A stretch of DNA of 64,000 nt, from the NCBI GenBank assembly GCA_947627365.1, contig CANQVT010000004.1, positions 1 through 64,000 of the forward strand. Reading direction: 5' to 3'. A program made the position numbers and the translations under genes. Below are positions 16,170 to 52,586 of this stretch, one piece after another. The stretch's first letter is position 1. Every line of letters starts with the position of its first letter. This DNA is from an uncultured Lachnospiraceae bacterium (GTDB lineage Bacteria > Bacillota > Clostridia > Lachnospirales > Lachnospiraceae). The notes beneath the pieces are model-generated. The model did not search any database. It had not been told where the DNA came from and was given only the letters and a program-made list of their open reading frames with translations.

Positions 16170-16174
16170 TTGTC
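16170..16174. repeat. 5-bp target site duplication TTGTC (left copy)
   Basis: Identical to 52582-52586; directly flanks the TG...CA ends. Confidence 0.9.
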
Positions 16175-16229
16175 TGTAGCCGCTCAAAATTTCTGTCAAA
16201 AATTCTCAACTTATTTGTCAAAAGTTTTC
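16175..16229. promoter_or_regulatory. Phage right end (attR-like) with candidate transposase sites
   Basis: TGTAGCCGCTCAAAATTTCTGTCAAAAATTCTCAACTTATTTGTCAAAAG matches the other terminus TGTACCCGATTAAAATAAATGTCAAAAA at many positions. Confidence 0.8.
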
Positions 16230-16294
16230 GGGAAATATTTCAAGAAAAGCGCCGCCCCGGATGCACTCCGGAAGCGGTGCCTTTTTTGACATTT

Positions 16295-16495
16295 TCATTG
16301 ATTATGAAGAAGCTCTGGCGGCAGGTCGATGCAGGCCACGCACGGCAGCTGTGACGCCGGGATGTGGTAGTTCTTGCAGGCTCCGCACGTCCTCCACTTC
16401 GGGCAGGCATCTCGGCGGCACTTCTCGAAGTCGTGCCTGCATAGCCCGCCCCAGTTGTGGCAGCACTTGAAGTCGCTCAGGAACTCGCCGTTCAC
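16295..16495 (-). CDS. Cys-rich putative zinc-binding protein (66 aa)
   Basis: 9 Cys: CCHNWGGLC..C....CPKWRTCGAC...CVAC; GTG start overlaps upstream stop. Confidence 0.55.
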   Translation of the reverse strand: MNGEFLSDFKCCHNWGGLCRHDFEKCRRDACPKWRTCGACKNYHIPASQLPCVACIDLPPELLHNQ

Positions 16496-16686
16496 TCTTC
16501 AGGGAACGCTTCGCCGGTGATCTCCTCGTACTCCTCGGCCGTGAGTGCGCCCTTCGTCACCACGTTGTAGACCATCTTCTTCGTCCACAGCCCCGCGTCA
16601 TAGAACTTTTTGTACTTCTCGAAGTTCTTGCTCTTCGGTGCTGCTTCCGCTGCCGGTTCCAGTGCCATCGTCCTCGTCTTACTCAT
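16492..16686 (-). CDS. XkdX-like small phage protein
   Basis: KKFYDAGLWTKKMVYNVVTKGALTAEEYEEITGE. Confidence 0.65.
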   Translation of the reverse strand: MSKTRTMALEPAAEAAPKSKNFEKYKKFYDAGLWTKKMVYNVVTKGALTAEEYEEITGEAFPEE

Positions 16687-16852
16687 AGATCCCGCCCTCG
16701 CTTTCGTCTTCATCTGTCGGAAGCTCCACGTCGGTCATGATCGCCATGTACGCGATCAGTGCCTCCTGCTGTGCCACCTTCGCGGCCATCACTTCCTCGT
16801 TTCGCTTTTCCTTGATCGACGCCGTCGGCGTCGTCAGTCTGTTCACTCTCAT
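16679..16852 (-). CDS. small phage protein overlapping the RT 3' end
   Basis: GGGAGG SD upstream of ATGAGAGTG; ends 8 nt into the next ORF. Confidence 0.5.
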   Translation of the reverse strand: MRVNRLTTPTASIKEKRNEEVMAAKVAQQEALIAYMAIMTDVELPTDEDESEGGIYE

Positions 16853-17882
16853 TTTGATCATCCTCCCATAAGCTCTTGTAATATGCTTCCATGCGCTGTA
16901 GCATTTTGAAGCTGTTCCCGTAGCTCGCGGACGCCTTCCATGATCGGAAGTGTTCGTCCACCTGTTCCCGCGTCTTCTCGCCCTTGCGGACCTTGATGAC
17001 CATCCTGCGCAGCTTCCTGCGCTCGTGCTTGATCTTCTCCGGCTTGATCGTCACGACCACCTTGCCGCTGTCTGTCAGCCGGAAGATGAAGCCCAGGAAC
17101 GGGATCCCTTCCTTGATGCGGTAGATCCGCGTCTTGTCCCGGTTCAGCTCCATGTGCCTGCTCTTCAGGTACTCGCTGATCACCTCCAGCGCGTGCTCCA
17201 GTCTCTCCCTGCTCTCGTCGATCATCTCGAAGTCGTCCATGTACCGCCCGTACTGCTCCATGTGCAGCTTCTCCTTGATCATGTGGTCCATGTCGCTCAG
17301 TGCTGTGATCCCGACGATCTGGATGATCTGGCTGCCGGGATTGAAGCCGACCTCTCCGGGGAAATTGTCCAGGATCGCCTCGGCCATCTGGTAGATGTTG
17401 TCGTCCAGGTACTTCCGCAGCACTTCCTTCGCGACGTCGTGCCTCATGTTCGGGTAGTAGCCTTTTATGTCGCATTGTAGGACGTAGCCCTCGGCCCCGT
17501 GCTTCCGGTAGTATCTCCGGAGCTGTTCCTTCAGCCGGTCTCGTGCGAAGTCCGTCCCTTTGCCCTTCTGGCACGCGTAGTTGTCATAGATGAACGTCCT
17601 CGTCGTTGCCGGGTAGATCGCCACGTCGTTCAGGCTCCTCTGGTACACCCGGTCGCGGAACGCGATGCTCATGATCTCGCGCGTTTTGGGCTCCGTGACG
17701 GTGAAGAACTTCGCCGGGCGCTCCTTGTATGTCCCGTCGTGCAGCTGGTTCGTGAGCCGCAGGATCTCGCGGATCCAGTTGTGGTAGAAGCTCGCCACGC
17801 CGTCCTTCCATAGGACGCCCCGGATGCACTTGCGCATCGAGTTGTACAGCGCCTCGAATCCTATGATTTCTTCAGCTTCCAC
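16710..17882 (-). CDS. DGR reverse transcriptase
   Basis: FTVTEPKTREI, CDIKGYYPNM, GFNPGSQIIQ, YGRYMDDFEMI; located next to TR and avd. Confidence 0.93.
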   Translation of the reverse strand: MEAEEIIGFEALYNSMRKCIRGVLWKDGVASFYHNWIREILRLTNQLHDGTYKERPAKFFTVTEPKTREIMSIAFRDRVYQRSLNDVAIYPATTRTFIYDNYACQKGKGTDFARDRLKEQLRRYYRKHGAEGYVLQCDIKGYYPNMRHDVAKEVLRKYLDDNIYQMAEAILDNFPGEVGFNPGSQIIQIVGITALSDMDHMIKEKLHMEQYGRYMDDFEMIDESRERLEHALEVISEYLKSRHMELNRDKTRIYRIKEGIPFLGFIFRLTDSGKVVVTIKPEKIKHERRKLRRMVIKVRKGEKTREQVDEHFRSWKASASYGNSFKMLQRMEAYYKSLWEDDQNESEQTDDADGVDQGKAKRGSDGREGGTAGGTDRVHGDHDRRGASDR

Positions 17883-18048
17883 GCATCCACCTCTTGATCC
17901 GTGGCGTGGTTAGCAGGACCGGCCCGCGGGTCGCCTGCATCGCCACGGTGTTGTTTTGCCGTTTCCGGCCGGGCTTTCGGCTCCTTGCGTGCTCTTTTTC
18001 GGGCCATCTCGCTGTGCGAAGACTTTCCGGCCCTGTGAAGCACCCAAT

Positions 18049-18167
18049 CCACCGCCGCGCGGGTCGCGTTGTACGCGTTGTTGTTGTTGACGTTGCCGCC
18101 CGCGTTCACGTACCACGTGTTGTTCGCGTTGCCGCGGTTCGCCGACCGCAAGCGGACGTTCTGCGCG
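18049..18167 (-). repeat. DGR template repeat (TR)
   Basis: 119 bp aligning gap-free to VR; 9 mismatches, all at minus-strand A of TR. Confidence 0.96.
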
Positions 18168-18182
18168 TTACAGCCTACAGCC

Positions 18183-18611
18183 CTATGCTTTACGCCCCGC
18201 CATCTGGCGGAAGCGGTTCGCATCTCCTTCCCTCCAGCTCCGCAGGTATGCCTTGACAGTCTCGACCATCCCGCCCCAGTATTCCACGCGCTTCGTGCGC
18301 AGGTGGAAGATCATCTTCGCGATCTGGATCTCGCTGAGGAGCTGTTCGCACTCCTCGATCGCGATGTTCTGGAGCCGTCGCCGCTCTTCCAGCTTTTCCT
18401 TGCCGTCTTTCCCGTCGAAGCGGATATTGTTCGCCACCCTTGCCCGGTGATAGATGTCCCGCGCCAGGTAGACGATCCGCTCGGTGCTCTTGGCGTGCGC
18501 GGGGTTGAATATCTTCGGGTTGTCTGTGATCTGTATGGTGTACGAGACGAGCGCTGCGGCCTTCGTGAGCACTTCCCACTTGCCCTCGCCTCTGTCGTCT
18601 TTCCTTACCAT
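18183..18611 (-). CDS. avd: Accessory variability determinant (Avd-like)
   Basis: Small helical basic ORF between VR gene and TR; GGAGG SD 8 nt before ATG at 18611. Confidence 0.8.
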   Translation of the reverse strand: MVRKDDRGEGKWEVLTKAAALVSYTIQITDNPKIFNPAHAKSTERIVYLARDIYHRARVANNIRFDGKDGKEKLEERRRLQNIAIEECEQLLSEIQIAKMIFHLRTKRVEYWGGMVETVKAYLRSWREGDANRFRQMAGRKA

Positions 18612-18627
18612 CTGGCGGCCCTCCATA

Positions 18628-51465: not shown

Positions 51466-51494
51466 ATAATATCTCTCAACTAGGAGAATGTCAA
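51466..51494 (-). promoter_or_regulatory. Putative early lytic promoter TTGACA-N17-TATTAT
   Basis: -35 51489-51494, spacer 51472-51488, -10 51466-51471 on the minus strand. Confidence 0.75.
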
Positions 51495-51540
51495 GAAAAA
51501 ATGTTCTATATCGGAGAAAAAGTTTCTATATAGGAGAATG
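51481..51540. promoter_or_regulatory. Candidate repressor operators ([AC]GGAGAA repeats)
   Basis: TAGGAGAATG 51481, TATCGGAGAA 51509, TATAGGAGAATG 51529; the first lies in the early-promoter spacer. Confidence 0.55.
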
Positions 51541-51549
51541 GAGGAGATC

Positions 51550-51966
51550 ATGGATTCAGTCGGTAAAAGAATAAAGGACCGCAGAAAAGAGCTGAGATTA
51601 ACACAAACAGATATTAAGAAACTCGTCGGTATTTCTTCGGGAAATATCAGCGAGATCGAGAACGGGAACCGCTTGCCAGCTGCTGGCACTCTCGTGCAGC
51701 TTGCGAGCGTTTTGCAGTGTTCTGTTGATTGGATATTGACTGGCGTGTCTCCTATCCAGGAGAGGCCGCCGATCTCCGCAAACGGAGAAATTGAAGAAGA
51801 GCTGCTTCGTGTCTTCCGGCAGCTGGATCCGGACGACCGCAGCGAGCTCGTGGAGATCGCGCAGATGAAGCTCTCCAGGCGAGCGAGGGGGGGTGCCGGA
51901 TCATCCAGTTCCGGCGATCCTGATCGCCTAAAAGCCGTCGCTGGCGGGGATGGTGTTTCTGCGTGA
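51550..51966 (+). CDS. Phage repressor, HTH_XRE
   Basis: GKRIKDRRKELRLTQTDIKKLVGISSGNISEIENG; divergent from the lytic operon. Confidence 0.88.
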   Translation: MDSVGKRIKDRRKELRLTQTDIKKLVGISSGNISEIENGNRLPAAGTLVQLASVLQCSVDWILTGVSPIQERPPISANGEIEEELLRVFRQLDPDDRSELVEIAQMKLSRRARGGAGSSSSGDPDRLKAVAGGDGVSA

Positions 51967-52002
51967 CTTTTTGGGTTATTTTGGATTATTTATAATCCAC
52001 TT

Positions 52003-52109
52003 TTTTGTCTCATTGTAAAAAGTGCGCGACCGGCCGCGAAAATTGGAAAAAATCCCGTAAATGCGGCAAAGAGACACGGTTCGGAAAATATTTCAGTTTT
52101 GTCTCATTG
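52003..52109. repeat. Two direct repeats of TTTTGTCTCATTG near the phage left end
   Basis: 52003-52015 and 52097-52109, candidate distal transposase sites. Confidence 0.55.
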
Positions 52110-52345
52110 GTTTGTGACGCCCGCAGCCAGGTCACGGCGTGGATCCGGAGCCGCGTCGCCGTCGCTCCGCTCCGCCGCTGTCAGCGTGTAACGCCCATTT
52201 TATCGGTGTTTGACGCGTTCGCGTCTCGGAATTGTGACGCCGTGACGCACAGAAGTGACGCGCAGGCGCTTGTCAGATCACCAGGTCGGTGCTAGAATTG
52301 TAAACGGTAGTTAATACCGTCTCTTTCAAAATGGGTTTATCAGTG

Positions 52346-52383
52346 AAAAAACCGCGGGAAGCTGCTTATTTCCGCGGTTTTTT
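52346..52383. terminator. Bidirectional terminator AAAAAACCGCGG...CCGCGGTTTTTT
   Basis: 12-bp perfect inverted repeat 52346-52357 / 52372-52383. Confidence 0.85.
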
Positions 52384-52553
52384 CCTGTTCTTCTCACGTC
52401 GTCGGCCGATCGCGTGAAAAAATATGCTCTATTCTCATTTTATTTGTCAATGGACGCGTTCGCGCGCGTCTCAAAAAATCGGTTTTTCCCTTTATTTATC
52501 GGGTTTTCCCGCCATTTCCCGCGTCGTCGTTCGTCGTCTCGACGTGGATCTCG

Positions 52554-52581
52554 TTTTTGACATTTATTTTAATCGGGTACA
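52554..52581. promoter_or_regulatory. Phage left end (attL-like)
   Basis: TTTTTGACATTTATTTTAATCGGGTACA, ending CA directly before TTGTC. Confidence 0.85.
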
Positions 52582-52586
52582 TTGTC
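52582..52586. repeat. 5-bp target site duplication TTGTC (right copy)
   Basis: Identical to 16170-16174. Confidence 0.9.

What the first reader, a model, noticed from the sequence alone, without database searches (positions are those of the whole stretch)
16170..52586. Mu-like prophage nested in an ICE conjugation gene, with base-exact ends
Seen: TTGTC at 16170-16174 and 52582-52586 flanks an element starting TGTAGC and ending GTACA. Deleting 16170-52581 joins ...GQYCYDN to NWLVNYDEMQPGDLIFYSY in frame (1808 + 208 = 2016 bp, 671 aa plus stop). The 5-bp duplication and TG/CA ends match Mu transposition. The interrupted gene is an NlpC/P60 hydrolase. Related hydrolases (Tn916 Orf14/CwlT type) are needed to open the wall for conjugation, so the insertion may disable the ICE or leave it dependent on another hydrolase. 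It could also let the phage ride on the ICE.
Basis: partly seen in the sequence, partly recalled or inferred. Interest (0 to 1): 0.85.

Follow-up and report, generated by a model that had tools for sequence, protein, structure and literature searches.

The report
Mu-like prophage splitting a conjugation gene
A complete Mu-type jumping phage has landed, with base-exact ends, inside a cell-wall-cutting gene of a conjugative element in a gut Lachnospiraceae bacterium; the nesting is a chance event of a known kind, but the phage and its relatives also carry unexplained internal copies of their own end sequences.

Summary
The element 16175-52581 (36,407 bp, 62% GC) sits between 5-bp TTGTC duplications in 45-46% GC conjugation DNA. 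It is a new relative of Faecalibacterium phage Mushu (TnpA 46-47% identical, 32 Mushu genes found in the same order) with its own diversity-generating retroelement. Independent copies in related genomes have the same termini and different 5-bp duplications. A 98%-identical uninterrupted hydrolase (P0049) reads straight across the junction, so the empty site exists. The insertion separates the conserved Cys from the conserved His of an NlpC/P60 hydrolase in a CD1110/CD1115-type transfer operon, so that protein is very probably dead. Effects on transfer are inferred. No integrase lies on this contig, so 'ICE' is plausible but not proven. 'Phage riding on the ICE' has no evidence. As a nesting event this is ordinary transposable-phage behaviour. 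Beyond the finding: 9 of 10 Mushu-like phages with mapped ends carry internal copies of their own terminal transposase-site motif, most often exactly between tail-tube and tail-chaperone genes (window 29315-29336). Mu and BalMu-1 do not. This may be transposase sites acting in self-target immunity, an open question in Mu biology.

The parts
16170..16174 (.). target-site duplication copy 1 (TTGTC)
52582..52586 (.). target-site duplication copy 2 (TTGTC)
16175..52581 (-). Mushu-like transposable prophage, 36,407 bp, left (early) end at 52581, right end at 16175
52553..52574 (-). terminal end-type site L1 (GATTAAAATAAATGTCAAAAAC)
16182..16203 (+). terminal end-type site R1 (GCTCAAAATTTCTGTCAAAAAT)
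16204..16225 (+). terminal end-type site R2, 22 bp from R1
29315..29336 (-). internal end-type site (TCTCAAAATAAATGTCAAAAAA) between tail tube and tail chaperone genes, just upstream of the chaperone ribosome-binding site
51538..51966 (+). Cro/CI-type helix-turn-helix repressor
   Evidence: Pfam HTH_3
48104..50224 (-). transposase TnpA (MuA-like)
   Evidence: Mu-transpos_C, DDE_2; 46-47% to Mushu TnpA
46922..47986 (-). target-capture ATPase TnpB (MuB-like)
   Evidence: AAA_22, TniB; 49% to Mushu transposase B
46207..46656 (-). GemA-like regulator
42301..43851 (-). endolysin (amidase plus glucosaminidase)
38512..40281 (-). terminase large subunit
   Evidence: 64% to Mushu
36118..37767 (-). Mu-type portal
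   Evidence: Portal_Mu
32901..33800 (-). major capsid protein (gpT type)
   Evidence: Mu-like_gpT
29804..31234 (-). tail sheath (DUF2586)
   Evidence: Mushu sheath
29351..29788 (-). tail tube
28866..29303 (-). minor tail protein / tail assembly chaperone (by position)
24887..28606 (-). tape measure protein
   Evidence: PhageMin_Tail
21641..22774 (-). baseplate J
18661..19893 (-). DGR target protein (DUF6273) with variable region at its C-terminus
18674..18796 (-). DGR variable region (VR)
18045..18167 (-). DGR template region (TR); all 10 TR/VR differences are at TR adenines
16710..17882 (-). DGR reverse transcriptase
   Evidence: RVT_1
52582..54389 (-). NlpC/P60 hydrolase gene, 5' part with the conserved Cys; now stops a few codons inside the phage
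15965..16174 (-). NlpC/P60 hydrolase gene, orphaned 3' part with the conserved His
56123..58576 (-). VirB4-like conjugal transfer ATPase, CD1110 family
   Evidence: NCBIfam equivalog NF045971, above cut-off
61387..63591 (-). VirD4-like coupling protein, CD1115 family
   Evidence: NCBIfam equivalog NF045973, above cut-off
4709..13144 (-). giant SNF2-type helicase / methylase of the conjugative element, downstream of the insertion

Best explanation
A Mushu-like transposable phage inserted by its own MuA/MuB-type transposition into an NlpC/P60 hydrolase gene of a CD1110/CD1115-type conjugative element, and duplicated 5 bp of target. Shown: exact ends, TSD, empty-site allele, collinear intact-looking phage gene set, other copies with the same ends and different TSDs. 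Inferred: the hydrolase is inactive because its catalytic Cys and His are now on separate fragments; the downstream transfer genes probably lose their promoter; the conjugative element therefore transfers poorly or only with help in trans; the site itself was a near-random choice and not a specialised nesting strategy.
For: TSD and ends; independent copies with identical or equivalent ends and TSDs TTTTG, ATATT, GAATC in the same genus and AAAAG, ACTAT, GTTAT, TCAAT, ACTTG, ATGGA in more distant genomes; empty allele P0049 at 97.7%; TnpA/TnpB and structural genes; published demonstration that Mushu replicates by transposition with a 5-bp direct repeat (PMC5883640; transposition sites throughout the host genome, PMC11792537); conserved Cys569 and His632 of homologue P0001 lie either side of the junction at N602/N603; GC step 46/62/45%.
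Against: No reads were available to show whether uninterrupted copies coexist. The source of P0049 is not shown, so it may come from the same or a sister sample. The role of the hydrolase in transfer is inferred from homology; NlpC/P60 activity may be partly dispensable for some conjugative elements (own knowledge of ICEBs1 CwlT work; that paper is not held). Terminator-like sites found at the phage ends point along the + strand near the junctions, so transcriptional polarity on the - strand operon is argued from the length of the insert, not from a demonstrated terminator.
Confidence: 0.95

Rival explanations
1. Add-on hypothesis A for the internal end-type sites (window 29315-29336 and equivalents): they are extra transposase-binding sites that lack a cleavable TG terminus; transposase bound there would clear or block the MuB-like TnpB inside the phage and so protect a 30-37 kb genome from self-integration.
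For: Motif trained without the window gives its best score in the whole prophage at 29315 (28.5 bits). Per-phage motif built from L1, R1, R2 finds internal sites above the maximum of 12 shuffles in 9 of 10 phages. Equivalent position tube|chaperone in 7 of 9 phages with a tube gene. Sequence follows the ends: TTGAGAA in Mushu, TGTCC in G097, TGTCAAAA in window/G017/G026. The same procedure in Mu recovers end sites at both ends and nothing internal, and BalMu-1 has none above shuffles. How Mu protects its 37 kb interior is stated to be unresolved (PMC7350765).
Against: No binding data. Tube|chaperone sites always face the same way and lie next to gene starts, which also fits a regulatory role. 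G458 has no internal site. G639's tube site matches the window's ends better than its own. Only 12 shuffles per phage and motifs from 3 sites.
Confidence: 0.35
2. Add-on hypothesis B for the internal sites: they are operators or mRNA-leader elements for phage gene regulation, bound by the transposase or by a regulator that shares its motif.
For: Many lie in short intergenic gaps directly upstream of ribosome-binding sites and in the sense orientation; in Mu the transposase also contacts an internal enhancer/operator (own knowledge; a reference title seen).
Against: Co-variation with terminal sites is not expected for a leader element alone; several internal sites lie inside genes (protease, P45) and some are inverted (G302, G132).
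Confidence: 0.35
3. The junctions are an assembly or binning chimera of phage and conjugative-element contigs.
For: The genome is an 84.5% complete, 104-contig assembly.
Against: A chimera would not give a 5-bp duplication at phage-exact ends and an in-frame rejoined gene whose 3' part is unchanged relative to an uninterrupted allele.
Confidence: 0.01
4. Insertion in the conjugative element is adaptive nesting: the phage gains conjugative spread.
For: Insertion is in a mobile element; a Mu-like phage on a plasmid has been described (PMC6435834).
Against: The gene hit is a transfer gene, which should impair transfer; other copies lie elsewhere (an intergenic position, a position just upstream of an open frame, and within another open frame).
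Confidence: 0.03

Closest known systems
Faecalibacterium phage FP_Mushu (Mushuvirus mushu, MG711460/NC_047913)
   Same: Gene order, TnpA/TnpB, Mu-type head, contractile tail, DGR at the right end, 5-bp duplication, TGT ends, R1/R2 spaced 22 bp, internal end-type site between tube and tail chaperone
   Different: TnpA 46-47% identical; megablast finds only a 726-bp capsid stretch at 72% in the 25 kb tested; end motif TGTCAAAAA instead of TTGAGAAA; no match to Mushu's endolysin; DGR target is a DUF6273 protein instead of the annotated Hoc-like protein
Escherichia phage Mu (NC_000929)
   Same: MuA/MuB-type transposition genes, 5-bp duplication, multiple end sites with R1/R2 abutting at 22 bp
   Different: Mu has no end-type site in its interior by the same scan; no DGR annotated
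pBH6::BH9 Mu-like phage in a Pseudomonas plasmid (PMC6435834)
   Same: Mu-like phage nested in another mobile element with a 5-bp duplication, plus a second copy elsewhere with another duplication
   Different: Small plasmid, not a conjugation gene of an integrative element
CwlT / Tn916 Orf14-type conjugation hydrolases (PDB 4hpe, 4fdy)
   Same: C-terminal NlpC/P60 domain in a conjugation operon
   Different: No detectable lysozyme domain in this protein; long N-terminal basic and membrane region

Membership tests
Mu-like transposable phage (Mushuvirus-related) | DDE transposase with Mu C-terminal domain plus AAA+ target-capture protein | tested here: met
Mu-like transposable phage (Mushuvirus-related) | 5-bp target duplication, exact ends, different sites for different copies | tested here: met
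Mu-like transposable phage (Mushuvirus-related) | Collinear Mu-type head and contractile tail genes | tested here: met
Mu-like transposable phage (Mushuvirus-related) | Packaging of variable host DNA at virion ends | not testable with these tools
   shown for Mushu itself (PMC5883640)
Genus Mushuvirus | Close nucleotide similarity over most of the genome | tested here: not met
   only one 726-bp stretch at 72% in the 25 kb tested; filed as a relative, not a member of the genus
Diversity-generating retroelement | RT, template and variable repeats differing at template adenines, variable copy at a gene's 3' end | tested here: met
   (10 of 10 differences at TR adenines)
Integrative and conjugative element (CD1110/CD1115 type) | VirB4, VirD4 and relaxase | tested here: met
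Integrative and conjugative element (CD1110/CD1115 type) | Integrase/recombinase and attachment sites | tested here: inconclusive
   none on the 85-kb contig; contig starts inside the element, and metabolic genes (aldo/keto reductase, Fe-alcohol dehydrogenase) at the far end suggest a chromosomal location
CwlT / Orf14 two-domain conjugation hydrolase | N-terminal lysozyme plus C-terminal NlpC/P60 | tested here: not met
   only NlpC/P60 found in Pfam and PDB sequence profiles; AlphaFold model too poor to decide (mean pLDDT 48)

The most novel reading that the evidence does not exclude
Mushu-like phages carry, inside their genomes, extra copies of the transposase-binding motif of their own ends (in the window at 29315-29336, between tail tube and tail chaperone), positionally conserved and co-varying with the ends, as a built-in protection against transposing into themselves; Mu lacks such sites.
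Probability: 0.35. Interest if true: 0.7.

Novelty: new member of a known kind. Interest (0 to 1): 0.5.

Why it matters
The nesting gives a natural knock-out of a conjugation hydrolase whose need could be tested. The larger point is the internal end-type sites: how a 37-kb transposable phage avoids destroying itself by self-insertion is not understood (PMC7350765 says more remains to be learned about genome immunity), and here is a conserved sequence feature, present also in an experimentally active phage (Mushu in F. prausnitzii A2-165), that makes one answer directly testable.

Tried and rejected
Search of the genus for the hydrolase: only generic NlpC/P60 proteins outside the window's own gene, so no empty site in the 47 genus genomes; the empty allele came from the protein collection instead. 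Integrase search for the conjugative element: none on the contig. AlphaFold of the intact homologue P0001: mean pLDDT 48, not used. G789: no convincing ends, left out. G306 and G485: contigs too short. G009: contig breaks before the tube|chaperone region, so the internal site could not be checked there. JBD30 as control: end motif not recovered reliably, so uninformative. BcepMu: accession not in the collection. Considered and rejected: site-specific prophage (duplications differ between copies), assembly chimera, adaptive nesting.
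Full report
1. Observation. TTGTC occurs at 16170-16174 and 52582-52586, and the 36,407-bp element between them starts TGTAGC and ends GTACA. Host flanks are 46% and 45% GC, the element 62%. Joining the flanks restores one reading frame of an NlpC/P60 hydrolase that aligns end to end with intact homologues P0001-P0003 (83-87%) and, over 397 aa, at 97.7% with P0049, whose sequence reads CYDNNWLVNYDEMQ straight across the junction. 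Its source is not shown by the tool, so it may be from a related sample. In the window the 5' part now ends a few codons into the phage, and the orphaned 3' part still matches P0049 without a change, which suggests a young insertion.

2. Exact ends, tested with independent copies. Genome G009 (record CANQIW01, isolate name Lapin-028, an uncultured Lachnospiraceae bin), in the same genus, has a phage with TnpA 97% identical. DNA homology to it stops exactly at window 52581, and its right end, on another contig, starts at the base that corresponds to 16175. The 5 bp outside both ends are TTTTG. G017 carries a relative (TnpA 56%) at C2:188840-226501 with duplication ATATT, and G026 one with GAATC. 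More distant relatives have AAAAG, ACTAT and GTTAT and TCAAT, ACTTG and ATGGA. Sites differ: with host flanks joined, G026's lies within an open frame, while G017's and G009's appear to be outside or just upstream of genes.

3. What the element is. The transposase has Mu-transpos_C and DDE_2 domains, the next gene is an AAA+/TniB ATPase, and portal, capsid and sheath are of Mu type. Thirty-two proteins of Faecalibacterium phage FP_Mushu match in the same order; TnpA is 46-47% identical. Megablast of 25 kb finds just one 726-bp stretch at 72%, so it is a relative and not a Mushuvirus. Mushu was shown to replicate by transposition with variable host DNA at both virion ends and a 5-bp direct repeat (PMC5883640), with sites throughout the host genome (PMC11792537). 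Like Mushu it has a diversity-generating retroelement: RT at 16710-17882, template 18045-18167, variable region 18674-18796 at the 3' end of a DUF6273 gene; all ten differences are at template adenines.

4. What was hit. The neighbours are a VirB4 of the CD1110 family and a VirD4 of the CD1115 family, with a MobA/VirD2 relaxase further along the same contig. No tyrosine or large serine recombinase lies on the 85-kb contig, which begins inside the element; metabolic genes at the far end suggest a chromosomal location. 'ICE' is therefore likely but not proven. In 27 aligned homologues Cys569 and His632 are invariant and the junction lies between N602 and N603, so the two halves of the active site are now on separate fragments. 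The protein has only the NlpC/P60 domain in common with CwlT, so the Orf14/CwlT comparison holds for one domain. Loss of function is a strong inference. Loss of transfer is a weaker one, because other hydrolases could help in trans and, from my own knowledge, the peptidase domain of ICEBs1 CwlT is partly dispensable (paper not held). The 36-kb insert also separates downstream transfer genes (15949 down to 338) from upstream promoters; this is an inference.

5. Beyond the finding: internal end-type sites. The ends carry a 22-bp motif, once near the left terminus and twice, 22 bp apart, at the right. A motif trained on G009, G017 and G026, without the window, gives its highest score in the whole prophage at an internal place, 29315-29336, between tail tube and tail chaperone, directly before the chaperone's ribosome-binding site. 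The core AATnnnTGTCAAAAA occurs three times in the window (both ends and this site) against 0.19 expected, and only twice elsewhere in the 2.82-Mb genome. Motifs built separately for each of ten phages from their own three terminal sites find internal copies above the best of 12 shuffles in nine. Seven of the nine phages with a tube gene have it in the tube|chaperone gap or within the first codons of the chaperone. The internal copy changes with the ends: TTGAGAA in Mushu, TGTCC in G097, TGTCAAAA in the window group. G639 is an exception, since its tube site resembles the window's ends more than its own. The same procedure on Mu recovers end sites near both termini and nothing internal; BalMu-1 has none above shuffles.

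6. How it might work. I propose that the transposase binds these internal sites. In the window the nearest TGT is two bases off the spacing seen at the real ends, so this site should not be cut. A bound transposase could remove the MuB-like TnpB locally, as Mu ends do in cis-immunity, which is strongest within about 5 kb. In Mu the interior is protected by a different and unresolved mechanism (PMC7350765), and phage Ab30 shows rare self-insertions distributed in domains (PMC5977238). The rival is a regulatory role, because many sites lie before ribosome-binding sites in one orientation. I give about 35% to each. Binding by the same protein as the ends is more likely (about 70%) than either specific function. 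All of this rests on sequence only.

7. Verdict. The given finding is right and well described, and the event is an ordinary result of Mu-type transposition into a mobile element; a Mu-like phage on a plasmid is already published (PMC6435834). The phage is a new relative of a known kind. The internal sites are the part that deserves a follow-up.

Noticed in passing
29315-29336: Internal copy of the phage's own terminal transposase-site motif, positionally conserved in Mushu-like phages and co-varying with the ends; absent from Mu and BalMu-1 interiors.
   Followed up: yes
18045-18796: Diversity-generating retroelement: 123-bp TR/VR pair, 92% identical, every difference at a TR adenine.
   Followed up: partly
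locus L016 (G017:C20:71121-71187): A second phage right end (85% identical over 67 bp) in G017, without a second transposase hit; probably another, partly assembled or decayed copy.
   Followed up: partly
locus L037:12204-17576 (same contig, outside the window) and window 4098-4712: The contig with the conjugative element carries a 1,790-aa SpaA-repeat, thioester-domain, LPXTG-anchored surface protein and a sortase, so the element may confer an adhesin.
   Followed up: no
locus L038:4336-5286 (same contig, outside the window): ParM/Alp-type actin-like segregation protein near the far end of the contig, unusual for a purely integrated element; could point to a plasmid-like phase.
   Followed up: no
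16175-52581: The phage is 62% GC in a 45-46% GC surrounding, whereas relatives in G017 and G026 are 46-47% GC, which suggests recent arrival from another host or a different history.
   Followed up: no
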